Shown here: positions 5,742-55,510 of the stretch, piece after piece
Position numbering within the stretch: the first letter of the stretch is position 1
Layout of the letters: the number at the start of each line of letters is the position of its first letter
Origin: Sclerodactyla briareus
Taxonomy: Eukaryota > Echinodermata > Holothuroidea > Dendrochirotida > Sclerodactylidae
Direction: 5' to 3'
NCBI GenBank assembly: GCA_026419785.1
Contig: JAODTK010005527.1
Span: 148,741 to 212,740 of the forward strand
Length of the DNA stretch: 64,000 nucleotides
Made by a program: the position numbers and the translations under genes
The notes under the pieces: generated by a model
What the model saw: the letters and a program-made list of their open reading frames with translations, nothing else
What the model was told of the DNA's origin: nothing
Databases searched by the model: none

Positions 5742-5930
5742 TGACACTTCTCCTGTGCCTTTAACCAACCGAGGAACCATGGTAGCCCCCAATAAAGACA
5801 GGAAGGTTGGCCTTACGTCGCATGAATCAATGAAGGTCATCGGAGAGATGGTGGGCATTGCTAGTCTCCCCGATGAGGTCTCCTATGTCCTTGCTGAGGA
5901 TACCACTTTCAGGCTCAAGTCACTTGGCAG
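5742..5930 (+). CDS. TAF6: TAF6 coding exon 1: start codon and N-terminal half of histone fold
   Basis: TAF6 is a TBP-associated factor. Its histone fold pairs with TAF9 in TFIID and in SAGA-type coactivators, in the nucleus. An ATTTCCAG acceptor ends at 5741. The ATG at 5779 sits in a strong context (ACCATGG), and the frame stays open for 50 codons to a GCAG|GTATAG donor. Residues 13-31 read LTSHESMKVIGEMVGIASL, followed by LPDEVSYVLAEDTTFRLK. This matches helix 1 and helix 2 of the TAF6 histone fold (human has ESMKVVAESMGIA and later DEVSYRIKEI). The exon is intact and ends in phase 2. The acceptor suggests a separate 5' UTR exon upstream. TAF6L is excluded by the later exons. Confidence 0.88.
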
Positions 5931-7341
5931 GTATAGTAAAGAGTTTTCGTGTTACGTTTCAAGGCAAGAGATTGATGTCATAGCACCGGGAGAATTGCAT
6001 GTTTATAAGAAACATTGGGTTGGCCGACTGCCTCATGGTTGGCATCAAGGGTACCTCAGGGAATAAGGGGGGAAGGGCCAGGCCAGGGGTGGTGCTGCCC
6101 GAGAGGAGGCGGGCGATGGGAAACCTGCAGGTGGAGGGCCTTCCAGGCATGTTTTTTTTTGCTCTCTTAGAGTGAGTGAGCTCTCATCAGAATGAATATG
6201 GTATGGCATGATATTCAAGTAGTGATCAATTAGTTATTAACCAGGTATCAATGTCCAATATCTGAGTCTTTTCATACAGAACTTCCTCGAAAAATGTTTA
6301 CAACAACGCTACAGTTCTAGTTCAAAATCCTACTCAAGCGTGTATATCACTCACAGGTACTCTAGGTAAGCCCCCTGGGTGGCAGAGGACTAGTTGGAGC
6401 AACTTGCCCAAAGGCATGCACATCAGTGCGAACTGATACTGTGAAGAGTGTCCATATTGGGGTGAGTGGAACCAGAGATGCTGGCAGTCAGTAGAAGCTC
6501 TGTACACTGAGTGTGACCTAGTTTGAATTTCCATTGAGAACACAACATCTTTTCCCATGAGACTTTGGACAAAACAATTTTTCACTCGACCCAAGCTGAC
6601 ATTGGGGACTTGCTGGAGGAAACGAGCAGTGAGCACCACCATGCATAGATCCCACACGAGATATAGCAAAAGCTTCATGATCGGTCAGTGACTAGTAGTT
6701 GTTGTCATAGAGGCATTTCAGGAAATGAAGGTAAAAGGTCCATTGAAGGAGCTTAGTAATAAGTTCATATACATGTTGTAAATTGCAAAGTTGGAATTTG
6801 TTCCAATGAAGTGGGATCATATATTTGGCCAATTTTGTGAGTGATAGGAATATCTAAATCACAAACACAGGCCTAGTATGCCTGAATATTTATGTCTTCC
6901 CTGTAATGGTATGCTCATGGTAAAATTTTTGCCGCATGAGCTTCTGCGTGTTGTTGATGGTTCATTAATGCCTTTGTGACAGTACGGAGGCCTCCCATAT
7001 ACTGCAACAGCAAATGCTGCAATTTTGTTCCAGCACAGTGCCTACTAACTGGATGGAACCATTATTCTGAGAAAAAATCTGGCAGCCCTGTCTCGGGACA
7101 TGTTGCCTCATCATGAATGGTTGGGCTGATGCTCCATTATGAGAATTGAGAATGCCATCATCTCCTGGCGTTCTGAACCTGGTCACTATCCGTTACAGTT
7201 CGGTATTCTCTCAATCTCGTTCTCACGAACCAATTTGAGCCAAAACGAGGGTAGCCCATGTCCATTCTTGTGCAGATGAATTCATGGAAAGTGATCTATC
7301 CCTATTTATTTTGCATCCTTGATTGTGCTCTGCTTCCTCAG
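5931..7341 (+). other. TAF6 intron
   Basis: Runs from a GTATAG donor to a TTCCTCAG acceptor. Nothing coding is recognised. Short ORFs on either strand lack conservation or domain signals. Confidence 0.7.
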
Positions 7342-7423
7342 GATGAGCAGGTGATGCGGAAGGGCAAGAGGAGGAAGCTCCCACTGCAGACTTGACAGTT
7401 CACTGCAAGAATCAGAATATAGA
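7342..7423 (+). CDS. TAF6: TAF6 coding exon 2: C-terminal half of histone fold (frameshifted)
   Basis: After TGCTTCCTCAG the reading is VMRKGKRRKL in one frame, then ADLTV and KNQNIE in another. Together these match the TAF6 helix 2-loop-helix 3 segment (human has [29 protein letters not shown]). The frame breaks near 7380, where CTCCCACTGCA lacks one base against the expected Leu-Thr-Thr codons. A base also seems to be missing at each exon edge: phase 2 arrives from exon 1 but the frame used needs one more G, and the donor reads AGAGTATGT. A stop follows the break if it is read literally. Several independent single-base losses in 82 bases suggest sequence error or a decaying copy. Confidence 0.75.
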
Positions 7424-8648
7424 GTATGTTATTGTGGAATAGCAGTATAGAGCTGGATCCGCAACTTTTTTCCGCTATCAGGGAAAGAGAATTAGACAAA
7501 CACAAAAGTTTTGGTTGTTGGTATTCGCTGTGGATTGAAAATTGGAATGTAGCCTCAGGGTTGGGTGTAGACCATCTGATTAATGTGGGCTTGAAAGGCA
7601 CAGATCAATACCATTTTACGTAATAGTTCCAGACAATGTATGGAACATGTAGCAATGTGGTTCGGCAGGAGCGGTGCGGTACAGAAGAACTCAGATGGTG
7701 AGATTTCGCACTAAATATGCTGATTAATTATTCTCATTCGAATAATTTAGGCAATTTTTTCAGGAATATTTCCAAAGGATTGTCAGATTTTCACAAAACT
7801 GAATATTGTCCATCATCTGTCCTAAGAAGTGGGAACAGTGAGTCAGGGTAGCTGGAGGTCATTTCATATCATATTTTCTTCTTTGCATAATTCATGCAAT
7901 TGTTAGTAGAAGTTAGTCTGATTTTGCAAACTTGGTAGATATCTCCACATCATTGCTTAGAATTTCAGAGATAGATTCAGGGTCACTGACGGTCATTCAT
8001 TTAGCCTCGTTTACTATAGGCCAATTTAAATTTGGTCAATCAAACACACACTGGTGGACATGGTAGCATGATGTCCCCAGTAATTGAGGTTTAAACTGGG
8101 AACCCTGGAGGCCCCCAATTAATCCTCCCCCCCCCCCCCCCCCATGATACCTTTAGATTCTAAAAACTCTAACAGTTAAATCCCCTCTCTGGTCCAACCT
8201 CTAACGTCAGGATAGTCAAAGAAGAAAACGCGGAATAAAGACTTTTCACCGTTACAGTTATTGAGCTGATAATACTAACGTGTCAAAGGTCGTAGGGATG
8301 CACTGTTCAACCTTGCAAAATGATCTCTCCAAACTGCCATTAGGGGAGCTACACATCCTGCCAGCACAAAACTTTCCTCCATACTTTAATTCACCAATAA
8401 CATCTGAAAAGATGGGATGAATTGGTTGTGTTCTCCATGAGTGGTGACAGTGGAAACATAGGCTGTGGATGATAACTTCGGCGGAATCTCGTCTATACCC
8501 CCGAGCTGTTCAGTGGTGAGCATGAACATTTGTTCCTTGAAAAGGCTGTTACCTTGCAATACAACCCATGAACTCAGGATGCTGGGACTAGCAGTTTGAG
8601 AACCTGCTGTGAACATGGGTTAACCTTTCGTTCATCCTTTTCCTACAG
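7424..8648 (+). other. TAF6 intron
   Basis: GTATGT donor to TTTTCCTACAG acceptor. It contains a run of C at about 8129-8143 and otherwise unremarkable sequence. Confidence 0.65.
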
Positions 8649-8802
8649 CCCCTGTATGGATTGACCGTCCCAGATAAGATTCCGTTCCGTTTCACCAGTG
8701 GCGGAGGACGAGAGCTCCACTTTGTAGAAGAGAAGGAAATAGACCTCTCAGAGGTGATCACCAGTCCACTGCCGAAAGTGCCCTTGGACGTATCTCTCAA
8801 AG
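8649..8802 (+). CDS. TAF6: TAF6 coding exon 3: conserved segment after the histone fold
   Basis: The exon is intact, 154 bases, entering in phase 0 and leaving in phase 1. It starts with PLYGL and continues through [26 protein letters not shown] and [12 protein letters not shown], which is almost diagnostic of TAF6 (human has IPFRFASGGGRELYF and [12 protein letters not shown]). TAF6L lacks this wording. The splice sites are TTCCTACAG and CTCAAAG|GTACGA. The last base joins exon 4 to make Ala of AHWL, confirming the donor. A second, damaged copy of most of this exon follows at 9268. Confidence 0.93.
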
Positions 8803-9872
8803 GTACGACCACCATCATCATTTCACCCCTTTCTTTGTTTTAGTTTTTTTCACTTGGAAGCCAGCCATACTGTGTGTGATATGTGTCAGTGTGGGTACTG
8901 CCACTTTGCTTGTTAGCACGTATGCATATGGATCAGGCGCTCACTAGGTATGTATGGCCCCTATGATGTGAGCCTCATTATTAAAGGTAATCTGAGATTA
9001 TCAGTGATCTGAGGCTCAGGAAAATTCATGCAATATGCACGAAAATTGATTTTCATAACTGTGCAGCAGAATGTCATATGAAGAATTGGGTTTGAACTTC
9101 CAACCAATAGGTTCCATTTTTTTTTCTCCAGTATGGAGTCCTCCTTCATTTAAACTTGTTATTTGTGTTCCTCATAATATGAAGTTAGGTACACATATGG
9201 ACCCTGTTGTTTTGGAGTACAATGGTCATGAAACAGATCATCTTTAAACTGGCATAAACGAAAAGAGGATAAGATTCCGTTCCGTTTCACCAGTGGCGGA
9301 GGACGAGAGCTCCACTTTGTAGAAGAGAAGGAATAGACCTCTCAGAGGTGATCACCAGTCCACTGCCGAAAGTGCCCTTGGACGTATCTCTCAAGGTACG
9401 ACCACCATCATCATTTCACCCCTTTCTTTGTTTTAGTTTTTCACTTGGAAGCCAGCATACTGTGTGTGATATGTGTCAGTGTGGGTACTGCCACTTTGCT
9501 TGTTAGCACGTATGCATATGGATCAGGCGCTCACTAGGTATGTATGGCCCCTATGATGTGAGCCTCAATATTTATTATTCATTAAAGGTAATCTGAGATT
9601 ATCAGTGATCTGAGGCTCAGGAAAATTCATGCAATATGCACGAAAATTGATTTTCATAACTGTGCAGCAGAATGTCTTATGAAGAATTGGGTTTGAACTT
9701 CCAACCATAGGTTCCATTTTTTTTTCTCCAGTATGGAGTCCTCCTTCATTTAAACTTGTTATTTGTGTTCCTCATAATATGAAGTTAGGTACACATATGG
9801 ACCCTGTTGTTTTGGAGTACAATGGTCATGAAACAGATCATCTTTAAAAAAACTGGCATAAACGAAAAGAGG
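8673..9872 (+). repeat. Direct tandem duplication, two ~600 bp units
   Basis: Unit 1 is about 8673-9267 and unit 2 about 9268-9872. They are nearly identical and start at GATAAGATTCCGTTCCG inside TAF6 exon 3; both end at AACGAAAAGAGGA. Differences are almost all short indels: GGAAATAG/GGAATAG, TCAAAGG/TCAAGG, a T run of 7 versus 5, CCAATAGG/CCATAGG, an A run, and one ~10 base insertion near 9570. There are very few substitutions. The breakpoint shows only two or three bases of homology. Confidence 0.93.
9268..9395 (+). pseudogene. TAF6: Duplicated partial TAF6 exon 3
   Basis: This second copy of exon 3 lacks the first 24 bases (PLYGL and its splice acceptor) because the duplication breakpoint lies inside the exon. 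It has lost one A in the EEKEID codons, creating an early TAG, and one A before the donor (CTCAAG|GTACGA). It cannot be spliced normally as an exon start and would shift the frame. It is most likely skipped, or is an assembly duplicate. Confidence 0.85.
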
Positions 9873-10878
9873 ACTTGTCAAAACCTACAACCAAAATTTG
9901 GCAATCCTAGCATGTTCCCTTGTTGATATATTTATTTTACTTGAATGATTTTCATCCTAACTGATGACATCACCAGGGTAACAATGCAAAGGTCGGCCCA
10001 TCGACACAGTAAATGCCTGTTTTTTTTTGCAACGCGTTTAGCAGTGGTAAAATCAGGTATCAATTTTCAATCAGAATCCCATGTTGGTGTCTTTTTTTGG
10101 GTCCCACTATAGGTCAGTAAAAATACATGTTTTGGACTGTCTTTGTATTACACATTCTGCGGTTACTCTCGTACGTCACCCCGGCATACTGTGCAATATC
10201 AGAATTTCCTCCTTTTCACACCCCTAATCGGCTGCAATTCTTTCTGAGGCCTGTATAGCGGGTTAGGTTTACATGACCATTGTACTTTTTAAGGAGTATC
10301 GACTTGTCAGACCATACTTTGACCTCCAGTATATTAATATAATTTTGTGTCTCAACCTCTTACAATCTTTGTGAAGTCTCAATGATTAGTTGGAACAAAA
10401 ATAGAAGGAAGGTAAAGGTCCGAAAGCCCATCTGAGGCCTACCTTGAACCCCCTCTTTGAGTCCCTGTTGCCCCTACTCCTCACTCTCCATTATGCTACA
10501 GGAATTCTTGCTTACGAGGTACAGTCTAAGTACGTGTATCATGATACACCACTTGATACACCACTATGCTATGCACAGATGAGCACACATACACACTTGT
10601 GTGGCACATGTACTGTAGGTAAAAAATGCCGCTCGCATCTGCAATTTTGTCACAGAATTACAGGAATTGATTCTCTTGTGTTATCTGGGTGAACACGAGA
10701 TGCATAAGCTCTATTAACAATAATGATGATGAACTGGTCAATAAATACTGAATACCACACTATTAGCAGAGATATCACTCTATAGCATTTATCTCCAGCG
10801 AAAATGTGTGTCTACTCAAATTTTTAGATGGGTGCAACTCAAGGCATGTTTTTTTTTTTTCTTTTTCTCTCATTCCAG
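9873..10878 (+). other. TAF6 intron
   Basis: Nothing coding is recognised between the duplication and the CATTCCAG acceptor of exon 4. A pyrimidine-rich tract with a T run (about 10849-10869) precedes that acceptor. Confidence 0.6.
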
Positions 10879-10935
10879 CTCACTGGCTCTGTGTGGAAGG
10901 TGTACAGCCTGCTATCCCTGAAAACCCACCACCAG
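10879..10935 (+). CDS. TAF6: TAF6 coding exon 4: AHWLCVEGVQPAIPENPPP
   Basis: A 57-base exon between CTCATTCCAG and CACCAG|GTATGT. With the G carried over from exon 3 it reads AHWLCVEGVQPAIPENPPP, nearly identical to human TAF6 (AHWLSIEGVQPAIPENPPP). It is intact, entering and leaving in phase 1. It is the last well-conserved piece before the variable linker. Confidence 0.92.
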
Positions 10936-13900: not shown

Positions 13901-14184
13901 GCTTTTAATATGTACAATGTTATTAAGATACAGCAAAAAATGTGCCATATGGTTATGAGGAAAAGTGTCTATTCATGAGGTCAGTCCTGAAAATGGTAAC
14001 AGAGGCCAGAAACAAACCAGACTAATCCTTACATGTCTGGAATCCACTCAGCAAAGCAGGATGTGTATTCACGGGCAGGTTCGATCTTCTCAATCATTCA
14101 CCTATCAACCACTCACTCAATTCTCACCCTCTCCCACCCACCCACCCAACTGCACCCACCCACCCACCTTATCCCTGCTTCCAG
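10936..14184 (+). other. TAF6 intron (3.2 kb)
   Basis: No further exon is needed: exon 4 splices in phase to 14185. It includes a member of the local ~150 bp repeat family around 12930-13200 and a (CCCA)n tract at about 14136-14166 just before the acceptor. A 132-codon minus-strand frame (12061-12459) shows no recognisable domain. Confidence 0.55.
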
Positions 14185-14361
14185 TGGACCAGGCAAGAGC
14201 AGAAGGTGGACGCGACAAGGCCAATGTCCACCAGAAACCAGTGAAAGCAGCAAGGAGAGGGAAGCCGACAAGGTCATGACCTTGCTGAACAAGGCCAAGG
14301 ACAGTTACTACGGAGATGAAAGAAGGTGAAGAACATCCTGGCCCATGAACTCTCAGTGGTG
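14185..14361 (+). CDS. TAF6: TAF6 coding exon 5: charged linker ending in HELSV (frameshifted)
   Basis: CCCTGCTTCCAG precedes the exon. Read in phase with exon 4 it gives VDQARAEGGRDKANVHQK. It then needs a shift near 14242 to give ESSKEREADKVMTLLNKAKD and another near 14328 to reach VKNILAHELSV. Human TAF6 has a charged linker here ending in IHELSVEQQLYYKEIT, so the HELSV end and its junction with the next exon (EQQL) identify it. The donor is either CAGTG|GTGGTAAG (which keeps HELSV-EQQ) or GTGGTG|GTAAGG. At least two single-base losses are needed. Confidence 0.78.
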
Positions 14362-15844
14362 GTAAGGATGTTGGCCAGATGGATTAGTGAATTATATTTA
14401 GATCGAAGTGCTTAAATAGCACTTTTCCAAGGTCATTATGAGCTGTCATTTGTAATTCCCACTGTCGAACCCCAGGATTAGGGACCGTCATTGTCCGATG
14501 GGCGTCATGCACTTGTGTGAAAATGCATTCACAAACCGTTCCAAGAAATGTTTCTAAGTTTGGAAGTGATGCTCTCTAAAATTGAAAATGTGACGTACTG
14601 TTGCATGAATCGACAGTCCTATTGATGCACTCCAGAGCCGCAAGGACCAAGGTAATGTACATACTGCATGCAACAAATGCTCTTCACTGTGATACCACAG
14701 TGTATACTCTTTATACCATGTTATATTTTGTAACTTGTTGGATTCTTGTATAGCAAAAAGTGACAGTCCCCTCCGTATGGAGGAAGTTGGTAATGATGAG
14801 CAATGATTGACACATCGCCCGGGGATGGTGGGAATGACAATTGACAGCTGCAATTAGAAACTCTCAAAGTGCCTCACAGATACATACTTTCATAGTGTAT
14901 GTGGAACCCGTTAGAACCTCTCCAGAACAGTCCTGGAGAGTAAGTGGTGCTTATTGTAGCAAAGGTTTTACTCAGGTCCCGCATACCCCTGATCATGGCA
15001 TAGGTGGGGTGGGGCTCGAGGCCAATGCCTCCCAAAGGGCACAGGGAGAGGCTGTCGGATCGAGGGATTCCACTCTCACCTTCGATTCTGCAGTCCGGAA
15101 TCTATTCCCCCACATCAAAGCAAGGGAGAGGAAACCTTCATGCAATATACCATCGCCGAGTTACTGATTTTCCAAAGTTTGATGAATATTCAGGGAAACT
15201 AGGGAGAGTTCCTTATTGCACAGTCAGAATGTAACAGCAGACGATTTGCAGAGAATCGCATGTATCTTACCTGCTTTATTGGGTTAGAAACTAAATTCAG
15301 CAGAGTTTGCTGTTCATTCTCTTACAAAAGTAACTAACAACACCTACTAGCCTCTCTACAGCAATCCTCTCCCCATAGAATAGTGGAAGGTAGTAAATGT
15401 TTAGATTCCTTATAGAAAACCAAAGGAATTTGTACCTTGTAGGGTTTTGCACAGAGATATAACAACATTTACAGTAGTGTTTTATGGAAGGTACTTTGAA
15501 ATTTTTCACAGTACACATGTAAACTTTTGGTGGACTAAAAAATTAAAAGCTACAAATTCTTTAACAAAATATTGGGGAAATAAATCTCTAATTTGGTCGT
15601 TCTCTATCAGAGGCTGTGTAGAGGCTAAGGGCAGCCTGTGCAGCATTCCCCCTATGACGTAATAGATTCCTAGATTTTTTCAAAAGAAAATTGGAATTTC
15701 TGAACAGGGCAGGCAACAGGCTAGAACCTCCAGATTTGGGGTGGTGGGGTTTTGATATTGTCCTCTTTTCATCTGTGTTAGGTAAGCAAATCTGTTACAT
15801 GACACATCTGTCTTTAATGAATGATCTTGATATTCTATCAACAG
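14362..15844 (+). other. TAF6 intron
   Basis: Ends at TTCTATCAACAG. A copy of a dispersed repeat lies at about 15612-15790. No other coding signal is seen. Confidence 0.55.
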
Positions 15845-15901
15845 GAGCAACAGCTGTTTACAAGAGATCACAGAGGCCTGCGTTGGCTCATCGAAACAAA
15901 G
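15845..15901 (+). CDS. TAF6: TAF6 coding exon 6: EQQL...KEITEACVGSS (frameshifted)
   Basis: The exon reads EQQLF, then KEITEACVGSS once two missing bases (CTGTTTACAAGAGATC against the expected longer Tyr-Lys-Glu codons) are allowed for. Human TAF6 has EQQLYYKEITEACVGSCE. This begins the conserved TAF6 C-terminal domain, a HEAT-repeat fold. The splice sites ATCAACAG and AAAG|GTGGTG are present. The literal frame is broken after five codons. Confidence 0.8.
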
Positions 15902-16947
15902 GTGGTGTGAGTTTTACTCTTTTTCCTTGTCCATTAATGATTATATTTGATAAACCCCCTCCTCCCGGTAATACACCCATTGGCCATTTAGTTTATGCTG
16001 TTGACGAAGAGGCTCCCGATTTGACGATTTTGAGTAAGTTAAACTAGTCATGTGAAATATGACATGACTTTGGACTTCATGTAGGATTATTTTACAATAT
16101 GGAAGCTGGATCCTCGACCAGATTTTAGCCAATCGGAACATGCTAATAGGGGACTCAATTACAAGTAGAAAATCCCCTGTGGTGTCATGAGGAGGGGTCC
16201 TTTGTAAATACATTGTGGACATGTACCTTTGAAAACCTGTGATGCAAATGACTATAGATGGGATCTGACTATATACTTACAAAATTTGTCACAAGATATA
16301 GAATGTCCATTTTATTCCTATTTGAACATTTTTTTCTGTTTCGCTGTGTAGAGTCTATAGGCAGCCATCGCATTGTCCCCTCCGTGATATCGTAAGTTCC
16401 TCACGAGTAAACTGGATCATCACTTAACGTGGCAACCATGCTAGAACCTAGGGGTTTGATATGCCATTTTCACACCTGTCTAGTTCAAAAGAAATATGTT
16501 ACTGTGCATGACTATCGGTCTCAAAATGACTTTCCGTCCCCAGGCACTATTTCCGGCAATAACCTCCTGTGGATCGAAAACAAATCTTCCCTATCAAGTA
16601 GTTGTATTATTAGGCAGTAAATTAAAGTGTGAGTGGAAAAGACGGCATTTCCCATCATCGAGTCACTTTCCTCTGCCGAATTTGTGATTTAATTTGACAA
16701 GATGAACTATGCTTTGCGGCAGTAATTACAGTGCAGGCAACAAAAAAGATGGCCGTCCCTATCATCAAGTCAATTATCCCTGCATTATTTGTAATTTGAG
16801 TTGACAAGAATGATTGCTCTGGTAATAAGACACAATTAGGAATGGTGCCCATACTCCAAAAAGTGTGGAGCAATAATGTTGCCTGGAGTAAACTTTTGAA
16901 GAGTTCAATGACAAGGAATCACAGAGCCATGACTTTTCTCATTTCAG
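15902..16947 (+). other. TAF6 intron
   Basis: Ends at TCTCATTTCAG. A second copy of the dispersed repeat seen in the previous intron lies at about 16345-16495. Confidence 0.55.
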
Positions 16948-17126
16948 CAAGCGCTGCAGAGCTGTCGTCGGACTCGGGACTATACCAGATGCTCCCGAGG
17001 TTCAGCTCGTTCATCAGCGAGGGGGTCCGGGTGAAATGTCGTCCAGAGTAACCTTGCCCTGCTCATATACCTCATGAGGATTGTCAAGGCTCTCATGGAT
17101 AATTTATTCCTATAACTGGAGAATAT
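16948..17126 (+). CDS. TAF6: TAF6 coding exon 7: HEAT-domain start (frameshifted)
   Basis: CTCATTTCAG leads into QALQS, then after a lost base [18 protein letters not shown], then after a second shift [16 protein letters not shown] and KALMDN. Human TAF6 reads [60 protein letters not shown], so identity is clear. A TAA interrupts the YLEKY region near 17111, probably from another indel. The donor GAATAT|GTGAGT fits the next exon starting MHEF (human VHEL). The second half of this exon and the intron start are tandemly amplified downstream. Confidence 0.85.
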
Positions 17127-17800
17127 GTGAGTAATGCAACACCTAAAGGCGCCTCTCATCATGGGTGGGAGGGAAGGGTGGGTTATTTGTCACCCATCAT
17201 ATGGGTCCAGGTCAAGGGTACCTAGAATAAATTTGCCTAGTCTATTCACCTTATGGATGGTCAAGGCCCTCATAGATAGCCCATCCCCATAACTGGGAAA
17301 TATGTGAGTATTGCAATACTTAAGGGTACTTCTCACCATGGGCTCAGTAGGTTACGGCCACCAAAATGATGGTCTGGGTCAAGGATATTCCGAGTTTCCG
17401 ACTAACTAACCTCTTCCTGCTCATATACCTCATGAGGATTGTCAAGGCTCTCATGGATAATTTATTCCTATAACTGGAGAATTATGTGAGTATTGCAACA
17501 CCTGAAAGCGCTCTTCACCATGGTTGGGGAGTTGAGGGTGTGGGTTATTGGTCACCAATTTGATGGGTCCAGGTCAAGGGTACCCAAGATAGCTTTGCCC
17601 TGTCTATAGAGAAAGGCCCTCATAGATAGTCCACCCCTATTATAACTGGGGGAACATGTGAGTATTGTAATACCCAAGGGCACTTCTCACTATGGGTGGG
17701 GGGCGCAGGTTGGTCATCATTCACCAATTTGATGAGTCTGGGTCAGGAATATCCCGACTAACCTTGCCTTGTTCATATAGCTTATGAGAATGGTGGAAGC
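17050..17800 (+). repeat. Tandem amplification of the 3' half of TAF6 exon 7 plus intron
   Basis: About five units of 160-190 bp start near 17050, 17245, 17410, 17600 and 17763. Each contains a version of the coding segment for [14 protein letters not shown], then a TAACTGG(A/G)GAA(T/C)ATGTGAGT block holding the splice donor, then CTTCTCACCATGGGTGGG and GGGTC(A/C)AGG. Units 1 and 3 are almost identical to each other. Units 2 and 4 resemble each other (AAGGCCCTCATAGATAG), pointing to a duplicated dimer of about 360 bp. Unit 2 codes for MVKALIDSPS, closer to the human DNP wording than unit 1. No unit after the first has a clear 3' splice site directly upstream. Confidence 0.85.
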
Positions 17801-19318
17801 TCCCTCAGATAATCATTGATTCCTTCCGTTGCATATGGAATATTCAAGGCATACACAGCAGAGAGTGTGAGAGTAGTGTGTAAAGTCCACACTCCACAGT
17901 GTAATGGGTGAAATCGATCAAGATTTCTAGCACGGCACAATGTTTACATGTAATACATTTCTCCACATCAAGACAAACTGTTCACTTGCACGACGTACAG
18001 TATGTTCAATTCTATAATGGGTTACAGTATCGTGATTGGGAAGCAAGTGTAACATTTTGCTGAACTAGCACCTGTACAAACTCTATTATGACTGTGTGCT
18101 CTGTGGTAGCAAATTACTTTGAAATGAGATTAAAAACTGCCATCTGAATCCTTCTAGAGAACATTAATGATGAAACAGAAATGAAGATTGGGTGATATTA
18201 ATACTATTCGCCAAAGTCTGAAGCACATTAATGAGGTGGCTTTGGGGAAGCGGGGGAAGGGGGTGCCTTTGTTTCTTCGATGCTTAGTTCAGGCAGAACA
18301 CTACCAACGATGCCAGTGAAAGAAAAGTCAGTCAGGTGTCCCGACTGTTTTGTCCAAAATTGTAGCTAGATGGCTAGAATGCTGCAATTCACTGCGGTTG
18401 TCATTGCCTGTGCACTGTATGCCCCGAGTTAGGAGCCCCGAGTTTGGAGCCCCGAGTTAGGAGCCCCGAGTATATTCCTAACTCAAACTGTCCAGAAAAG
18501 GAAGCAGCACAGTTGGCAACTCCATCAGCCAATACACCCGGGCACCCACAAAGTGACATCAAAATTTTTATATTACAATTCTGACACAAGGAATTCTTGG
18601 GAATTCTTCCATCAGTCATCGACCATCTTTTCCCGAGCAAGTTTAGACATTGTTGTAACCTGTTTTTCAGCGCCCAGGTATATTGAAATTGTCGTTAAAA
18701 TTGCTAACCGCCAGGTGTTTTTCAGCCGCAAGAGGCGTAATGTCGCCTGGAAAATTGTCCTAACTTCTCCCTTTTCCCTGGCACATGTCACTGCAGGGCT
18801 TTCGTTCCCTTTGCTGGTTAGGCCTTCACTTCCAGTCTAGGGCGTTGATGTGGTTAACGTCATGTCCACGTCCGGGTACTTAGGCAAGTTGGGGTGAATT
18901 AACCGGTTCTCTTTCGCTATCCCTCTGATTGTGGGCTTCATAGATATGACAGTACCTCTCCTTGTTAGCCAACTATTCCCTCCTATGTGCTCCTCTCACG
19001 CTGGGGTTACAGTTGTGCCCCGCATCCTTCCCACGCGGGGTGAGTATGGGCTGGTAGGGTTGCCAGTTGCACTGCTTCTTTCATGCCGGTTGAATAAGGA
19101 ATATAGCTTAGGGTATATGGTATACTTCCCCATCGGGGAGTATCCTCCTCGATGGGGGAGATTGTGTGTATGCAGTTGTTCTTCCTGCTTTCGTCAGAAA
19201 TTCTCTCACCCAAACCCCCCACTTTAGGTGGATGTTTGCGCTCAGGTCTTGCTTGCTGCATTCATCCAGTCAGTCCAATGATCAACACGGTATATCTCCC
19301 TGTCCTTCTCTCCCCCAG
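17801..19318 (+). other. TAF6 intron, remainder
   Basis: Ends at a pyrimidine-rich CTTCTCTCCCCCAG acceptor. It contains the 14 bp minisatellite at 18420. ORFs of 95-98 codons around 18.5-19.3 kb have no recognisable product. Confidence 0.55.
18420..18470. repeat. 14 bp minisatellite, ~3.6 copies
   Basis: Unit GCCCCGAGTTAGGA, repeated with one T-for-A change (GCCCCGAGTTTGGA) in the second copy. Confidence 0.9.
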
Positions 19319-19443
19319 ATGCACGAGTTTATACCTGCCGTGATGACCTGTATCGTCAGTAAGCAATTGTGCCTGAGACCGGACATCGACAACCACTGGG
19401 CTCTAAGGGACTTTGCTGCCAGGCAGATGGCTAGCATCTGCAA
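19319..19443 (+). CDS. TAF6: TAF6 coding exon 8: HEAT domain, intact
   Basis: An open 125-base exon reading [18 protein letters not shown], then [17 protein letters not shown] and QMASIC. Human TAF6 has [35 protein letters not shown], so this is the most conserved part of the C-terminal HEAT domain. The acceptor is CCCCCAG and the donor CTGCAA|GTAAGT. It leaves in phase 2, and the next exon supplies G to complete Lys. No indel is needed. Confidence 0.95.
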
Positions 19444-20501
19444 GTAAGTGTCCAGGGCAGTGGTATACCACCGGGGGGAGGGGGATTTGGGGGATTGAAA
19501 TCCTCCCCATGACCCAAGTGACAAAAAACAACAACAGAGATTGAGAGAAAAAATGCTTGAAAGATCATCATTCGGTATTTGACTACTGTTACACCATATT
19601 GCATCTAAGGGAGTGGAAAATTACATTTTTTTGGGCCACAGGGAGGGACACCCCCCCCTCTCCTCCAGGAACGCCTCAGGCCGGAACCCCCCCCCCAGAC
19701 AAATCTCTCAGTATGCGCCTGGTCTATGGTATATAATCTCTCCATTGAATGATCTACAAGTCATTGCACACATTGTACTTACTTTTAAAGTACCACTAAC
19801 CTATGCATTTTTGCTCACCCATACACCAATTACCCGAGATCTGGGATAATCTTCACGAGTTGGTCACCACGTACTTCCAAGTTATGCCAGCCAAAGTTCA
19901 CAGCTCTGAAATTTGAAGACCAAGCTTGAAGGCCAATAACTCCACATCAGGAACATCTTATTGAAATTGGGGTTGGCCTATAGATACAGTTTTACATTCT
20001 CCCCGCTTAACTGCTGTCATATCCAAGCCTGCAGTTGTCCTTCAAATTATCTGACAACTCTAGCAAGTTTGCGTCTTGCTTTGCCCCCCCCCCCCTTTCA
20101 TGACGCCATAAATGCCTCCAATCCATCAAGGGTGAACCTAAATCATACAACAAACACGGTAACATGCTAGAACTCTCAACTCCTGGGTGTGAGGCTTCAT
20201 ATCCCCTTTTCACCTGTGGCTAGTTAGGATAATACACATATGCCGCTGTAGTTACATTATCCTGTAGTTGCAGGCAGTGTAAGAGCAGGCAAGAAAACAC
20301 CTACTTAGATTTGTACTTTTTTTTGGGGGGGGGCTTTACTCCATTTTGGAGGGGTAACATCTCGGTGGCGCCAAGGGGCACTAAGCGAGTGGTGGCATGC
20401 TATCGATTAATGGTTGACCAAAAATTATCCAAACCCCAGAGGAGGTCCGTCTCTGATTGTACTATTTGCCATCTCACTAATCCCACTCTTCCCATTTGCA
20501 G
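19444..20501 (+). other. TAF6 intron with dispersed repeats
   Basis: Contains a C/G-run element (about 19475-19730), one copy of a repeat shared with 25.4-25.56 kb (about 19885-20060), and a copy of the repeat shared with the exon 5 and exon 6 introns (about 20158-20235). Ends at CTTCCCATTTGCAG. Confidence 0.55.
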
Positions 20502-20633
20502 GAAATTCAGCACTCGACGAACAACATCCAAAGCGGAGAGTCTCGAAAGAACCTTTGACAATCCTCTGCGTAGACACTGGCTCCACTCCGCACGCTGTTG
20601 GGGCGGTAGCCGGGCTATAGAACTTGGTCATGG
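20502..20633 (+). CDS. TAF6: TAF6 coding exon 9: KFST...ELGH (frameshifted)
   Basis: In phase with exon 8 it starts KKFST. After several shifts it shows NNIQS, then RTFDNPLRR, then TGSTPHAVGAVAGL and finally ELGH. Human TAF6 has [22 protein letters not shown]...RYGSIAGLAELGHDV. At least three indels are needed. The donor is CATGG|GTAGGG, and one base is missing before the next exon (VIKT) if the protein continues as in relatives. Confidence 0.78.
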
Positions 20634-22513: not shown

Positions 22514-22638
22514 GTGATCAAGACTATCATCATGCCCAAACTGAAGCCCTCAGTGAGAGGATCTGGAGTGTACGAGAGAGCTCCATGAGCAGTAACTTTG
22601 ACAAGATCGCCGCAGACCACCTCAAGTCTCTCGTCTTG
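22514..22638 (+). CDS. TAF6: TAF6 coding exon 10: VIKTIIMPKLKP...DKIAADHLKSLVL (frameshifted)
   Basis: TCTGACAG opens the frame VIKTIIMPKLKPS. After a shift near 22560 it gives ERIWSV and SSNFDKIAADHLKSLVL up to GTCTTG|GTGAGT. Human TAF6 has [20 protein letters not shown] and NIDRIGADHVQSLLL. The donor is strong. The continuation (human KHCAPVLAKLR) is not found in the next 5.8 kb; a possible match lies beyond the DIRS element at 35904. Confidence 0.85.
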
Positions 22639-30300: not shown

Positions 30301-32400
30301 CAGTGCAAAACTCAGCAAGGATCCGCAAGATCAGAGGTCCTCCCGTTTTTTTTACTGCGGGCGTCGTCGTCGGCAGCTCGCGGGCGCTCTAAAAAAAAAA
30401 CAAAAAATCCAGCTTGGTGGGGATCCTCCGGGTCACCCCGGTCTACGGCGAGTCGGGGGGGACCTGCGTCCTGTCTTTCCTTCTCCGCCACTGCTGGCTC
30501 CTGTTGGGGTCCGCCCAGTATAATAATGGGGGGAATGACGGGCCCTGCGTGGGGCCGAGTATCAGGTGGGACGGTCACTTCGTTGATTTGAAGGGCCACG
30601 GGTTTAATACCCTCGTCACCACCGGGGTCTTTCAGGGACCATTGCCGATCCTCTGGGCACTCGGGTGTCTCAGGCCCCCTCCCATCCCCTCCACCTAAGG
30701 CGACCCGGGCATGTGCCGTTCGCTGGGTGTTGGGGAATGAGGCCCCGAGGGGGACGCTGTTTAGAGACGACTACGGCGGCGCTGCCGTCACCCTTTCCGT
30801 CGTCCATGTCCCTACGGTTAGGGAGGACTCCGCGTTGTCGGGTTCAGTCTCATGCACCCCCACCAGGACCAGTTGGCTCTGCCTGTGGGGTGCATGGACC
30901 CTGCCGACAGGGGCGAGGGCAGGGAACGTTCATACAGTGGGGGGAGGGTTCTTGAGAGCACCAAAGCCATATGTTTATGGCGTTCTCCCAAATCGGTTCG
31001 GTCCGTCGGCCCGGGTAAAGTGTTCAGGGGACGGCCCGTCCACGGGGCTGTCGGTGTGGACGTAGGTCACTGTTAGTGCGCCCAACCCAGTTGGGATATT
31101 CCGTGGGTCGTCCCGTAGGGGCACCGTTCATGGCTGCCAGCCAAAACAAACCTCACGAAGGGTTCTCCGCGGGGGGGCTCTTGGGGAGGAAGCCCCACCC
31201 CCCTCCTGCGATGCTGGGAACCTCAGTCAGAAGAGACTCGGGCGGGCGGAGTTTGTTGTCCTCCGATCCCGCCCCAGACGGCAAGGCCCGTCTGTGCGAC
31301 GGGGAAAACGGGGTCCACCCCTGCAGTGTCCTCGGATAGGAAGAGGAGGCGACCCCCTACTCGTAAGTCCCGTAAGCCCAAGAAGAAGCCAACGCTTCGG
31401 GCGGGCAATTAGCTTCCAAGTTGGAAGATCTTCAGTCCCTGACGGCGGCGTGTTGGCTCAAGGGCTGTCACGCCCGGAGCTGACGGGCCTCTCCGCCGGG
31501 GACCGGGGGTCGCTGGTCCTCCTCCCCCTCCTCGACAACACCGGGACCTCCGCGAGCCGGTTAGGGTTTTCAGTGTCGGTTGTTCCTCCAGTACGTCTCC
31601 GCCCTGTGTTCAGGCGAAGAGCCGTCGAGGGAGACAGACGTCGATCTTCCCCCGCCGGTCCTCGACACCGGAGATCGACGTGCACGCATTCGACCCTTGG
31701 TAGGGTCGGGCGCTCCGTCGTCGCCGGCGGAATCTCCTGCCCCTCCGTTGGGGGGGCCTGTAGCGGCCAGGAGTCCCTCAGTCGACGGAAGAAGAGCCAC
31801 CCGTTACGGGCCTCGTTTAGGCAGACTACGCTGCGGCGGTGAAAGAACTGGACGGGCTTTCTCCCTGGAATTGTCAAAAGACCCCAGGCAGGCCGCAACG
31901 GAGGATCCGACAGGCTGGGCGCGTTTGGACCAGAGCGGGATCCGCCTCCGCCCCGATCCTACCCTCCCTTTTTTTTTTTTATGACGCTGGAGTGTTCCAG
32001 ATTTTCCAGGCTAGGGCCGGACGTCCCCGTCGAGCGTCCCACAGCCGGAGGACCGCCGCTTCGAGTACCCCAGCCACCGTACGATGCCATTCTCCGTTCC
32101 CCTCCCTGCCGCCGGAGCGTGGGACAGGCTGGTCCTGCGGGGAGAGCGTCTCGGTTCTCCGGCCAAGGAGGGGGGAAGGCCTGGCTTCTGGTCATGAAGG
32201 ATCGGCCCCAGGCGGACCGAAGAGACGCCGATCTCAAGTTTTTTGACCGTGCAGCGAGAATCGGTATCAAGGTCTCGGCTCTCCAGCTTTTATTAGCGGA
32301 GAGTGGTTCGCCAAGGTGGCGCCGTCGGCAGACCCCTCCCTGCGGGAGGTGATGGGATCTGGGCCAGGCATCAAGGGGAATCGCGGGAGTTTACGGCGCC
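30301..32400 (+). pseudogene. DIRS first-ORF (gag-like) remnant
   Basis: Position before the reverse transcriptase matches the first ORF of DIRS elements, which encodes a gag-like protein. The block is open in overlapping frames of 96-182 codons, rich in Arg, Pro, Ser and Gly. The later part (31839-32246) holds a stretch ending near KFFDRAARIGIKVSAL that leads toward the polymerase. No zinc knuckle or other named motif is visible, so assignment rests on context. Frame changes are frequent, including around the T run at 31970. Confidence 0.45.
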
Positions 32401-33880
32401 TCACCCGAGCTCCGGGCGATTCCGTGCTACGTCGGTCCCCCGCGGGGTGACCGCTACCAGGCGTCGGCGTTGGAGAGGGAGATCGAAAAACACTTTTGGC
32501 CAAGGGGGCATTACTCCCCTCCAACCGAAGAAGTGCACGGTTTGGGCGTCCTTTCCTTGACGCCCAAGAGGGAAGGTTCGTGGCGGCCGATATTGAACAT
32601 GCGTCCTACCAGCAGTTCGTCCGCCCACCCCCACTTCGGCATGGAGGAAACACTAGTGTGATTTTCAAACACAACTCGGAGGGGTATTTTGGGAAAGTCG
32701 GTGGACCTAGTGGATGTATACTTGCATATCCCCGTCAGGCGGGGAGGATTCTTCGTTCTATGCTTCGTACGCGCTTCCTACTACCGAGTTTTACCCGTAT
32801 CCCGTTCGGGTTGTCGACGGCGCCCCAGGTGTGTTTACACGGGGTCTCGAGGGGCATGGTGGCCCATCTGCGTCAGGGGGTCCAGATCATCACTATCTGG
32901 AACGATGGCTTATCGGGGGGGGGGACTCACGGCGGAGGGTTCAGAGGAGGCACCGCACGGTTTGGATTGGAGGGAGATGGGATGGACTCGTCAACTTGCC
33001 AGTCACGACCTGACGACCGTTCCCGCAGATCTTATCTGGGGGACCCAGATCGAGCTAGAGCGGACGGGGTGCCCACCCCCCACCCTGGGAGACTGGAGGC
33101 CGGCAAGCCGGGGTTGCGGCCTGCTTCAGGGCAGAAATCTCCATGCTCGGGCGTGGCTGGTGCTCCTCGGCTTCATGGTGAGCTCGAGGACATGGTTCCC
33201 TATTGCCAGCTGTACATGCGCCACCTCCAGATCCACCTCTTGGTGTTTGTCGTGTCGTATCGGGTCTGCCCGACGCCAGCAGTGCGTGGCAAGACACCCT
33301 GGACCGATAATCGGTGGTGGAGAACAGGGACAACGTCATGCAGGGGGTTACGGTTCCCGCCTTTCGTCCAACTTTTGGCCTAACGTCGGACGCCTCGCTG
33401 GAAGGCGGGGGCTCACGGCCCCGAGTCGCGTTGGGCTCACGTGTGGGAGAATAGGACCAGTTACGGGGGGACCCACATTAAACGTGCTCGAGTTGCTGGG
33501 GTTGTTCCGCCACTTTGAAATACTGCACCGAGAGTGGCGGGCCCGCCTGTACTGGTCCGTTGCGACAGTAACGCGGCGGTGTCGTACATAACGGCAGGGC
33601 GGGACGCGTTCGCGGAGGCTCGGTCCGGAACTGTCCGTGGTGGCCGCGCGCACGGCGTGCGCAGTCAGGGGGGTTCACTTCGGCCGTTCGAGAACTCCCA
33701 TCGGCGGACGCGCTCTCGCCGCATTCACTCAGGCTCCGACGGAGTGGTCTTTTCACGTCGGAGTTGTGCAAGCGTTGTTCGAGGCGTTTCATCGTCCGGA
33801 GGTGGACCATGTTCGCATCCCTCTCAACGCAAAGCTGCCTCTCATCTGCAACACGAGTCCCGTCGAGGGGAGCCTGGGCG
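32401..33880 (+). pseudogene. DIRS reverse transcriptase-RNase H remnant
   Basis: Motifs appear in order across shifting frames. LTPKREGSWRPILNMRP at about 32557-32607 is the fingers motif before the first catalytic Asp. VDLVDVYLHIPV at about 32698-32735 carries that first Asp. PFGLSTAPQV lies at about 32803-32832. The YLDD catalytic site at about 32896-32911 is split by one extra A. RNase H follows with SDASLEG (33384-33404), LELLGLFR near 33490 and VRCDSNAAVSYIT (about 33555-33593). The segment VD..PLNAKLP (about 33802-33840) is typical of the extension after RNase H in DIRS-type elements. At least six frame changes are needed, so no active enzyme is encoded as written. Confidence 0.85.
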
Positions 33881-34149
33881 GTAGATGCTCTGGCCAGGAT
33901 GGGGCCTTTCTCGACGCTTACGCCTTCCCGCCGGTCAGTCTAGTCGGACAGGGTGGTCGAGTGGAGCGGTGGCTAGGAGGAGAGGAGCCCGGTGGGTTCT
34001 CATGGATAGGGCCGTTTTTGGCCGACCACAAGGTGGGTTCCGACCGTTCCGCACGTTGTCGGGATTCAATACGAGCGCGGGCCTTTCGGAGGAGGCTGCC
34101 GGATTGGCGCACGGGGGCGGGGATTCCACCCTACGGCCCTGTCTGATTC

Positions 34150-35065
34150 CGACTCGGAATCGTCCAGCGGGTGGTTGTGGGATCGCCTGGTCTTCTCCGG
34201 CAAGGCCACTGTGGGGAGGTGGAACGATTTCCTCACTCTCCTTGTCCGGTTAGGGCGGGAAAGTGAACACGATCCGGGCTTACCGCTCCGCTTGTTGCGG
34301 CTATACATAGCGGATGGATTCGGGGATGGATCAACAGTTGATTCTGCGAAGCCACTTGACCTCCTCCTTAGTAGCAGGTTTATGGATCATCCTAGAGTTC
34401 GCACTCTAGTTCCGCCCGGACATGGGGACGTCCTGCGGATACTAGCGGAGCATCCCTTCGAGCCGATAGCGGGACTGCTCTCGGCCGCGTGTCAGTTAAT
34501 AGACAGCATTCCTCCTGCGCGGCATTCGGCTCGGCACGCCGTTGCCTTGCATGCTTTTCTACCCTCCCGGCCATATGGTTTTTGAAGCCTCAAAGGGGTC
34601 CGACCTGGTTTAGGACCCGAGGTTCTCTATAAAACGCAGTCGGTCAATTTTCGCACGGCTCTGATTCTTCGCTGCGATTGGGGAGTCTAGGGAGTGAAGG
34701 GGATTGAGGTTGGGTGTCCGGTTCGGGCCATTCGGGTTAATGGACTTTCGGACCGTCCTCCGTGGTCGTGTTACGTTGCTGTTTGTCTATCGCGCAGCGA
34801 CCTATCATACAAGCGCCTCAAGGATACGATCTCCCCTGATCGTCAGCGTATCCAGTCGGGCGGACCCGGGCGTTGGTCCGTATCGACCGCGAGCTCTCGA
34901 AGTGCGGGGGGTTGATTCCTCCCTCGCGCTCTATAACGGTGTGCCTTTGGAGGAGATTCCCAGCTGCGGGATGGAAATCTCAGAATACCTTTATCGTTCC
35001 TACCTCGGGACCACCCTGCGAAGTGAATCCCGCCATGGCAAGCTTACTCTCCGCGAGGGGATGCG
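34150..35065 (+). pseudogene. DIRS tyrosine recombinase remnant
   Basis: The N-terminal part reads WDRLVFSGKATVGRWNDF (34176 on), a core-binding-like segment. RFMDHPRVRTLVPPGH and LRILAEHPFEPIAGL follow. The C-terminal catalytic half shows RSDLSYKRLKDTIS, EVRGV and LYNGVPLEEI, then a segment ending in SYLGT. In this family the active site is R, HxxR or KxxR, and a C-terminal Tyr. The EVR and the Tyr of SYLG are visible in context, but the His expected before EVR reads Leu (RALEVRG). Frames change several times. This domain, not an integrase, is what separates DIRS from LTR elements. Confidence 0.75.
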
Positions 35066-51788: not shown

Positions 51789-53624
51789 GTAAGACATAAA
51801 TCCTCGCAATTCTCCTTCAATTCAACTGGCTCAGGTAACACTCCGGCCTCACAATTAAGAAAAGAGGCCACCGGCACCAAGGGATGGAAAGGACTACTCC
51901 TTAAGAACGATCATCCATGTTTCTATAACACCTTTGAAATGCGTCCATATTTTTGTGTTTGAACACAGTATAACCGTTTGGCAAACAATGTCTTGCATGT
52001 TAGATTTGATATAAATTCAAAGTTCTGGAAGCTCTTTCAGGGTCATCCATAAGGAGTGGTTATAGCATGGCAGGCCACTATGGCGTGGTCACATCGGTAT
52101 AGTCTTTTGTTGAGCAGTTGAGTCGTGGTTGTCCTTTCGCGGCCTCAGCCTACACATCCTACACTTAAGTGTGGCTTAGGCCGATTACTCAGCTACGTAG
52201 GAGCGAAAACTGTCTGTGAACACTCCTCATTCCGCTTTATTGAATTGAAGCCACCCCGCAATCACGTAACGCTAAAACGCCTAGTTCAAGGCATAGGGCA
52301 CATTTTTTCTGTGGCGCTGATGCCTCACTATAGTTGGATTGTGCCATCAAATGCTGAGACGGGAGGACATATCCTGAATTGACCGCCCGTCAGGTGGATT
52401 GCTTAAGGTGTGTTTCTTCACCTCCCATCCCCCCCCCCACCCAACCCCCATGGTGAATGTTGATATCATTGGTGTTAGCATGCAGCAGTTTATTTGAGGT
52501 CATATCTTGTACAAGATTACACAAAATATTATGGCTCCGTGAAGAATGGGCAAATAGAGAGACGTACCACCACGCCCCGGGGTGTGTCCTGAACATGGTC
52601 TAGACAACTGCGCCTGGTAGTATCCGACTGAATCAGACCCTCTAGAGCCCTAGCGAGTAACAGTGGCTACATCATTTGAGTGCTTGTTTTGGGCCGGGTG
52701 ATTTGTGGCACTCTGAATATCAACCAATCTTAATAAAGGTAGTCATGGATCAATAGCTGCACAAATTGGTTTTATCCCAGTTTTCGATCGGCTGTTTGCC
52801 GTAAGGTGGTTCTTCGTTTACTTGAGCAACTGAATAGAAGAATTCCAAAATGGCCCCAAAATGTTACTGGATGATTTTGATTGATTGATCTGATATATTG
52901 GGAAATGATCCTTATAAGTTTTCTTATAATTGTTTTATAAAATCTCAGGGCACCTAAAAACTCGATGAAATACCGAAAGGTTGATTTTTCAAGAATTGGA
53001 GCTAAACTGCACAGTACACAGCGAGCAAACACGTTAATGTTTCGAAAAAGTCGATTGCCTAAAAGTGGATATAAAGATACATGAAGTATTTCAATTAGGA
53101 ATATTTGACTCGAAGTTCACTAATTAGCTTTTTTCAAACATATAACAGTAAAATAAGAACATTTCACTTGTTGGACTGTTGGTAGTGTGATCCCCTATAT
53201 ATGACTTGTGATTCAGATACTAATCCATGACAACATCGTGAGGGCGGTCATACTATACCTTTTCTCTCGTTTCGTTCGGTTGACACGTTTTGGTTCGCTA
53301 TCATATACTATACCATCAAAATACCTTGTCAAAATCAGATGGGTTTGTAACAAACTGTATTCCTAAGTGAAAGTATAAGAAAGATCGTATGATAAATCGT
53401 GTAGCTCAACGAGAAATAGGAAATATGTTATTATCAAAAGCGTTATTACCGAAACAATGTCGTTACGAAATTAGATTGACCTACTAAACTCACAAACTCA
53501 AAATTTGATGAACTATTATATTGCATAGAAGGAAATGTAGAGACATGCAGTAGAAGAGCGTGACATGTTAAAGGACCTTCTCAATTAAGGTCACCTTTTC
53601 TCAATAAAACAAAACAAATGGAGT
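51789..53624. other. No supported gene
   Basis: An 85-codon frame (52125-52382) and an 86-codon minus frame (52772-53032) show no recognised domain. A C-rich stretch lies near 52420-52450. Confidence 0.45.
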
Positions 53625-55510
53625 CAGTTGGTACTGGTCCTAACTGGTATGAACAGTACTCCTGTTGGTACTGGTCCTAACCGATATGAACCGTATATCA
53701 GTTTGTATTGGTCCTAACTGGTATGAACTGTACACCAGTTGGTACAGGTCCTAACTGGTATGAACAGTACTCCTGTTGGTACTGGTCCTAACTGATATGA
53801 ACAGTACTCCTGTTGGTACTGGTCCTAACTGGTATGAACAGTACTCCTGTTGGTACTGGTCTAATGGTATGAACAGTACTCCTGTTGGTACTGGTCCTAA
53901 CTGATATGAACCGTACGGTACATCAGTTGGTACTGGTCCTAACTGGTATGAGCAGTACTCCTGTTGGTACTGGTCCTGACTGGTATGAGCAGTACTCCTG
54001 TTGGTACTGGTCCTAACTGATATAAACCGTACATCAGTTGGTACTGGTCATAACTGATACAAACCTTATATCAGTTGGTACTGGTCCTAACTGGTATGAG
54101 CAGTACTCCTGTTGGTACTGGTCCTAACTGATATAAACCGTACATCAGTTGGTACTGGTCCTAACTGGTATGAAACCGGACACCATGGTTGGTTCTAGTT
54201 CCTAATGGTTATGAACCGTACGCCAGTTGGTACTGTTCGAGCTGATATGAACAGTTATTATCAGTTGGTAGGGCCCTAACTGGCATGAGCAGTACCCGTT
54301 GCGTAAAGGTCCTAATGTATGAACCGTATATCAGTGGTACTGGTCCGAATGAATATGAAACCCGACACCAGTCGGTATGGGTCCTAACTGGTTATGAAAA
54401 GACACCAGTCGGTAATGGGTCCAACGGCTATGAAACCGTCAATCGTTGGTACGGGTCCTTACTGGTATGTACCGTACACCAGTTGGTAGGATCCTAACTG
54501 GCATGAACCGTACATCAGTTGGTACAGGTCCTAACGGGTATAACCGTACATCAGTTGGTACAGTCCTGATTGATAGGAACCGTACACTAGTTGGTAATGG
54601 TCCTCCCAACGGATATGAACGTACATAGTTGGTACTGGTCCGAACTGGTATAAAACAGTACACCAGTTGGTACAGGTCCTAACTGGATACTGAAACATTA
54701 CACCAGTTGGTGCAAGTCCTAATTGGCATGAACTGTGCACCAGTGTACGCGTCCTAACTGATATGAACCGTAACCAGCGGTATTGTCCACTTACTGGTCT
54801 GACAGTACACCCGTCGGTAATGTCCCACCTGATATTTAAACCGTTCAAATCAGTTGGTAAGGGTTCCTTAACTGGTATGACCGTACATCCAGTTGGTACT
54901 GATCCTTAACTGGCATGAACCGTATATGCCAGATGGTACGGTCCTAACTGGTGTTAACCGTACACAAGTTTTGGTACTGGTCCTAATGGTATGAACAGTA
55001 CACCAGTTGTACATGTCCTAACTGATATAAACCGGTAATCAGTTTGTTCTGGTTCCTAAAATGGTATGAGCAGTACACCAGTTGGTACAGGTCCTAACTG
55101 GTATGAAACCGTACACTAGTTGGTACTGGTCCTAACGACTGGTAGGTACGTACGCCATTGGTGGTGGTACTGTTCGTAGATGGATATGAAAACCGTATAT
55201 CAGTTGTACTGGTCTAATGGTATGAACCGTACACCAGTTGGTACGAGCCCTAACTGGCATAAACCGTACCACCAGTGGTAATTGGTCCTAACTGATATGA
55301 ACAGTACTCCTGTTGGTACTGGTCCTAACTGGTCTGAGCCGTACACCATACATTGGTACTTGTCCTAACTGCATGAAACGCACACCCGGTTGGTACTAGT
55401 CTTGACTGGCATGAACCGTACATCAATTGGTACTGGTTCAAACTGGTTATTAAACTGTACACCAGTAGTACTGGTCTAACTGGTGAGAACCAACATCAGT
55501 TAGTACTTTC
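53625..55510. repeat. 37 bp minisatellite, about 50 units
   Basis: The unit is TTGGTACTGGTCCTAACTGG then TATGAACAGTACTCCTG, or a variant with CCGTACACCAG at the end. Units in the first ~550 bp are uniform and alternate between the ACAGTACTCCTG and CCGTACATCAG versions. Later units carry many small indels and substitutions. Because 37 is not a multiple of three, each frame meets the TAA or TGA within a few units, so protein coding is unlikely. Confidence 0.97.

What the first reader, a model, noticed from the sequence alone, without database searches (positions are those of the whole stretch)
17050..17800. Tandem amplification of a TAF6 exon segment with its splice donor
About five units repeat the coding block for [14 protein letters not shown] together with the following splice donor and intron start. 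Units 1 and 3 match closely, as do 2 and 4, which points to duplication of a two-unit block. Unit 2 codes for MVKALIDSPS, closer to other animals' TAF6 than the exon's own sequence. This could be a nursery of alternative exons, gene conversion, or non-coding satellite growth seeded by an exon.
Basis: partly seen in the sequence, partly recalled or inferred. Interest (0 to 1): 0.72.

Follow-up and report, generated by a model that had tools for sequence, protein, structure and literature searches.

The report
Exon-edge tandem repeat in TAF6
The end of one TAF6 exon, with its splice site and the start of the next intron, has been copied several times in a row, most likely as non-coding repeat growth like the exon-edge repeats ("mirages") known from lancelets rather than as spare exons.

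Summary
The array is real in this assembly: five units (about 17017-17834; offsets 169-181 nt, strongest pairing at 358 nt) hold the end of a TAF6 exon, and units 1-4 also its donor GTGAGT and intron start. Units 1/3 and 2/4 pair as described; units 1 and 3 share a 66-nt identical tract, suggesting gene conversion. The exon-nursery reading fails: units 1-3 and 5 have a stop in the best TAF6 alignment, unit 4 has TAA by direct reading, units 2-3 lack a convincing acceptor, unit 5 lacks the donor. The anatomy matches lancelet "mirages". It is not special to TAF6: a 595-bp duplication of the same kind sits at another TAF6 exon, and 3 of 20 kinase exons carry one at the donor edge (random spots on this contig: 34 of 300 touched by local repeats). 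Caveats: unnamed species, no RNA, uneven indel errors in the assembly. Unexplained: the exon-attached TAF6 unit, and one kinase array, carry a stop at a conserved tyrosine. New example of a known kind.

The parts
16948..17126 (+). TAF6 exon (human residues about 241-300) from its acceptor to the donor of unit 1; its 3' part is the likely seed of the array
   Evidence: matches to human TAF6; three frame breaks and one TAA in the assembly. Acceptor at the 99.0 percentile.
17017..17204 (+). unit 1: exon 3' end, donor GTGAGT after 17126, about 75 nt of intron
17205..17367 (+). unit 2, decayed exon-end copy, donor after 17303
   Evidence: one TAA and one frame break in the best alignment, 2-nt gap against unit 1
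17368..17563 (+). unit 3, donor after 17485; shares a 66-nt identical tract with unit 1
   Evidence: one TAA
17564..17730 (+). unit 4, donor after 17657; lacks about 14 nt of the exon part
   Evidence: TAA by direct reading (its best protein alignment fell on an unrelated part of TAF6 and shows no stop)
17731..17834 (+). unit 5, partial and decayed, no donor
   Evidence: one stop, TAG
8673..9873 (+). second exon-edge duplication in the same gene: 595-bp stretch (8673-9267) with the 3' part of the TAF6 exon at 8649-8802, its donor and intron, copied once (9268-9873)
   Evidence: 96.2% identical over 612 columns
19319..19443 (+). next TAF6 exon ([11 protein letters not shown]...ASICK), no stop or frame break

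Best explanation
It is a minisatellite-like tandem duplication of an exon-intron boundary, of the kind called a mirage in lancelets. An early unequal exchange or slippage event duplicated a stretch of roughly 180 nt running from the last part of the TAF6 exon across its donor into the intron. A two-unit block then duplicated, and partial gene conversion copied about 66 nt between units 1 and 3. The extra units lie in the intron downstream of the authentic exon. They are expected to be removed with that intron, because the exon's own acceptor pairs with the nearest donor and units 2-3 lack a good acceptor. Shown: the array, its anatomy, the conversion-like tract, the donors, and further local duplications of the same anatomy in this genome. 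Inferred: the order of events, the direction of conversion, and that splicing ignores the extra units.
For: Each of units 1-4 carries exon end, GTGAGT and intron start. Units 1-4 are 66-83% identical, with the strongest pairing at 358 nt. A 66-nt identical tract in u1/u3 sits in a pair otherwise identical at 83 of 138 columns. Stops in units 1-3 and 5. Best acceptor candidates in the array, at 17610 and 17781, are at the 96.8 percentile, against 97.5-99.9 for the six TAF6 acceptors scored. A whole-genome DNA search with 17050-17800 finds only this place. Local duplications are common: 22 clusters, 42,156 of 212,740 bp of this contig (one cluster alone is 18,685 bp), and at least one in each of the first 10 kb of four other contigs. 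The same anatomy, edges judged by eye, lies at the donor edge of another TAF6 exon and of 3 of 20 kinase exons. Passages in PMC3087553 and PMC3902484 describe such structures in lancelet globin, Adh, TnC and PGBD5 genes and say that they do not seem to disturb splicing.
Against: The exon-attached unit itself has TAA at a conserved Tyr plus frame breaks, so the expectation that the authentic exon stays intact is not met in this assembly. The array is seen in one assembly only. The taxon is not shown to be a lancelet: a search with a lancelet-derived fluorescent protein found nothing, though the tool says an empty answer shows nothing. The donor 9-mer ATGTGAGTA is the only invariant run of 6 or more in units 1-4, and 48 of 5000 shuffles reach a window of 9 invariant columns, which could hint at selection on the donors.
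Confidence: 0.8

Rival explanations
1. Alternative-exon nursery: downstream units are used as alternative 3' ends of the exon, or as cassette exons, giving different TAF6 isoforms.
For: Four GTGAGT donors within about 530 nt, scoring 7.4-9.0 with a recalled matrix where 96 of 3897 GT sites of the window reach 7; two moderate acceptor-like AGs at 17610 and 17781.
Against: Units 1-3 and 5 contain a stop in the best TAF6 alignment and unit 4 has TAA by direct reading. Units 2 and 4 carry gaps of 2 and about 14 nt. The two AGs lie in the decayed units 4 and 5, and an exon from 17610 to 17657 read in the exon's phase hits TAA.
Confidence: 0.05
2. Assembly artefact: the array, or the identical u1/u3 tract and the TAA in unit 1, comes from mis-assembly or consensus error in a noisy assembly.
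For: Histone genes found in the genome have many frame breaks. Five of nine TAF6 exons have 1-6 frame breaks. The 595-bp duplicate pair differs, counted by eye inside the duplicated stretch of the alignment, by 1 substitution and 8 gaps (the script's totals, flanks included, are 5 mismatches and 14 gaps). PMC3087553 reports a lancelet mirage that was aberrantly assembled in the draft.
Against: Units 1-4 differ from each other at 17-34% of aligned bases, up to 47% with unit 5, more than read noise would give between copies of one unit. Seven of the ten kinase exons translated read in frame by eye. The stop codon is shared by diverged units.
Confidence: 0.12
3. The TAF6 locus is a decaying pseudogene or null allele, in which the array grows without constraint, and the working TAF6 copy is missing from the assembly.
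For: TAA in the exon-attached unit; frame breaks in five of nine exons, six of them in the exon at 20497-20631.
Against: It is the only TAF6 locus found in the assembly (the tool scores only its best candidates). Four exons have no stop or frame break, and three of these are 66-83% identical to human. Frame breaks occur elsewhere in the assembly too. This can be true together with the best explanation.
Confidence: 0.2

Closest known systems
Lancelet mirages (minisatellite-like tandem duplications of exon-intron boundaries in Adh3, globin BflGb6 and BflGb9, and by report TnC and PGBD5)
   Same: Tandem units that span an exon edge and intron; splice signals copied; homogenisation between units (passages of PMC3087553 and PMC3902484).
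   Different: Units here are about 163-196 nt (595 at the second site), against 10-160 bp quoted in PMC3087553. There, transcripts were checked for some genes; here the exon is broken by a stop and no RNA is available. The taxon here is unknown.
Tandem genomic duplication as a route to intron gain (passages of PMC3443670)
   Same: Local duplication copies splice-signal-bearing sequence inside a gene.
   Different: There the duplicated segment is exonic with AGGT and a new intron can appear. Here the copies fall inside an existing intron and no new intron is evident.
Tandemly duplicated, mutually exclusive exons (recalled, no call)
   Same: Tandem copies of coding sequence in one gene.
   Different: Those copies hold a whole exon with acceptor, donor and open frame. 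These lack the 5' part of the exon, a good acceptor in units 2-3, and the frame.

Membership tests
Lancelet mirage | Tandem units spanning an exon-intron boundary | tested here: met
   four of five units carry exon end, donor and intron start
Lancelet mirage | Concerted evolution within the cluster | tested here: met
   66-nt identical tract in u1/u3, 0 of 20,000 shuffles; a selective or assembly cause is not excluded
Lancelet mirage | Authentic exon intact and normally spliced | tested here: inconclusive
   exon has TAA and three frame breaks in the assembly; no RNA to test splicing
Lancelet mirage | Length polymorphism or somatic instability | not testable with these tools
   One assembly, no reads
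Lancelet mirage | Host is a cephalochordate | tested here: inconclusive
   fluorescent-protein search empty; no COX1 match; genome unnamed
Tandem alternative exons | Each copy has its own acceptor | tested here: not met
   best AGs before units 2 and 3 at 82.8 and 89.5 percentile; two at 96.8 in units 4 and 5; six true acceptors 97.5-99.9 (crude, recalled matrix)
Tandem alternative exons | Each copy has an open frame in phase | tested here: not met
   stops in units 1, 2, 3 and 5; unit 4 TAA by direct reading

The most novel reading that the evidence does not exclude
Exon-edge arrays in this genome may damage the genes that carry them. Homogenisation between units would spread stop-bearing sequence into the authentic exon end, as the TAF6 array and a MAST-like kinase array both suggest with a stop at a conserved Tyr in the exon-attached unit. 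Either this genome carries recent null alleles made this way, or some process at DNA or RNA level joins the exon to an intact unit; the fourth unit of the kinase array still codes Tyr, while no TAF6 unit does.
Probability: 0.08. Interest if true: 0.75.

Novelty: new member of a known kind. Interest (0 to 1): 0.35.

Why it matters
Exon-edge repeats are a proposed source of new introns, and in the passages I read they are described gene by gene in lancelets. This case, with four further donor-edge cases in a sample of 36 exons, suggests a genome where they can be counted. The comparison with random spots suggests that they follow from a general tendency to local tandem duplication rather than from anything about TAF6.

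Tried and rejected
Rejected: alternative-exon nursery (stops and acceptors). Rejected: dispersed satellite family; the array DNA matches only itself in the genome, within the limits of that search. Left open: pseudogene or null allele; systematic read error behind the TAA. Rejected for TAF6: the idea that an intact unit replaces the exon end, because none of units 1-4 has the Tyr codon and unit 5 is decayed there.

Tried, led nowhere: naming the species. A fluorescent-protein search was empty, COX1 was not found, and a search with family PF01353 did not complete. Rfam found nothing in the window at gathering scores. Searches meant to enlarge the test sample did not complete: PF00001 and PF00270. 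Tandem Repeats Finder did not report the array.

Full report
WHAT IS THERE. The window is G000:C2770:148741-212740 of an unnamed 319-Mb, 3171-contig assembly and ends at the contig end. It holds a TAF6 gene on the + strand. Human TAF6 (8 matches) and the Pfam families PF07571 (2) and PF02969 (1) match only here in the assembly (only the best candidates are scored). I count nine exon matches: about 5824-5931, 7342-7424, 8649-8802, 10879-10935, 15845-15906, 16948-17126, 19319-19443, 20497-20631 and 22514-22638. A match at 14178-14406 of low identity, with three frame breaks and a stop, was not counted.

THE ARRAY. The exon at 16948-17126 is followed by four more copies of its 3' end; units 1-4 also carry intron start. 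Offsets between neighbouring units are 169-181 nt, and the longest pairing is at 358 nt. Units 1-4 keep GTGAGT; unit 5 is partial and has none. The longest identical run in u1/u3 is 66 nt, and the rest of the pair is identical at 83 of 138 columns; no shuffle of 20,000 gave such a run. Gene conversion or a short recent exchange is the simplest cause; shared constraint or mis-assembly remain possible.

IS IT CODING? In the frame-tolerant alignment to human TAF6, units 1, 2, 3 and 5 each contain one stop. Unit 4's best alignment fell on an unrelated part of TAF6 and shows no stop; by direct reading it has TAA at the place of units 1-3. Acceptors were scored with a crude, recalled matrix: six TAF6 acceptors lie at 97.5-99.9 percentile of all AGs in the window; the best two in the array (17610, 17781) at 96.8, in the decayed units 4 and 5; the best before units 2 and 3 at 82.8 and 89.5. 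I therefore reject the nursery reading.

HOW COMMON. Local direct repeats (E 1e-6, at least 60 columns, offset up to 2 kb) form 22 clusters over 42,156 of 212,740 bp of contig C2770, one of which spans 18,685 bp; three Markov sequences gave none. Exon sample: a local repeat crosses the donor edge in 2 of 9 TAF6 exons, 0 of 7 HSP70 matches and 3 of 20 kinase matches (all 20 matches). That is 5 of 36, all at the donor edge; exon edges were judged by eye. The three groups were tested with somewhat different flanks and thresholds, and the flank of L061 was cut short. Of 300 random 180-nt spots on C2770, 34 were touched under the test used for the kinase exons. So there is no clear enrichment at exons. 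The kinase cases: L047, a MAST-like exon (name recalled), four ~181-bp units each with GGTAAG and a degenerate continuation; L045, a NEK-like exon (name recalled), an array of about 62 bp that begins at the exon end and overlaps the match by 12 bases; L061, a 77-bp repeat of about 27 nt of exon end, donor and intron. Outside this count are the four histone loci: in L034 an 89-bp duplicate ends at the likely acceptor of an H3-like exon; in L035-L037 no repeat touches the genes.

ASSEMBLY QUALITY. Six histone alignments in L035-L037 have 6-10 frame breaks each, and an H3-like exon in L034 has 3; two of the six are poor alignments. Of nine TAF6 exons, four have no frame break, three have one, one has three and one has six. 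Against pervasive noise: of ten kinase exons translated, seven (L042, L043, L044, L046, L048, L050, L051) read in frame by eye, L045 and L047 have one stop each, and L049 looks frame-broken; the other ten were not translated. In one search, 7 of 20 kinase matches list a stop inside; at least one of these (L044) lies at the likely donor, at the match end. I read this as uneven indel error, so frame breaks alone do not prove a pseudogene; real pseudogenes cannot be excluded for any one locus.

UNEXPLAINED. TAA replaces a conserved Tyr in units 1-4 of TAF6, including the exon-attached unit. As units 1-4 differ at 17-34% of bases, chance read error in each is unlikely. In the MAST-like array, units 1-3 carry TAG at a conserved Tyr and unit 4 has TAT. 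Two cases are too few for a pattern; a null haplotype, spread of a stop by conversion, or a systematic error could each explain them.

WHAT IS KNOWN. Lancelet genes carry such exon-edge minisatellites, called mirages: globin BflGb6 (six and three units in two haplotypes, 81-100% identity), BflGb9, Adh3, and by report TnC and PGBD5, apparently without harm to splicing (passages of PMC3087553; one passage of PMC3902484; the original Adh paper was not read). Tandem duplication is a recognised route to intron gain (passages of PMC3443670). The only search with TAF6 as a term, listed 10 of 32 papers; by title none is about such an array. No wider claim of absence is made.

VERDICT. Observation confirmed with corrections, interpretation partly supported: a mirage-type, probably non-coding exon-edge array, one of many local duplications on this contig.

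Noticed in passing
window 8673-9873: A 595-bp tandem duplication of TAF6 exon end, donor and intron, nearly identical apart from small indels; the second copy has a frame break in its exon part.
   Followed up: yes
L047 578-1341 and L052: MAST-like kinase exon with four ~181-bp exon-edge units; TAG at a conserved Tyr in units 1-3, TAT in unit 4.
   Followed up: partly
L034 1278-1510: 89-bp near-exact duplicate ending at the likely acceptor of an H3-like exon.
   Followed up: partly
L035, L036, L037: Histone H3/H4 genes with 6-10 frame breaks each; the PF00125 search listed four matches in all, with no full-length one.
   Followed up: partly
window 53624-55507: Large minisatellite, about 50 copies of a 37-nt unit.
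   Followed up: no
window 30592-34582: Run of overlapping long open frames, possibly a broken retroelement by my recall; four of these frames gave no Pfam match at E 0.1.
   Followed up: partly
window 17125-17133: The donor 9-mer ATGTGAGTA is the only invariant run of 6 or more across units 1-4.
   Followed up: partly
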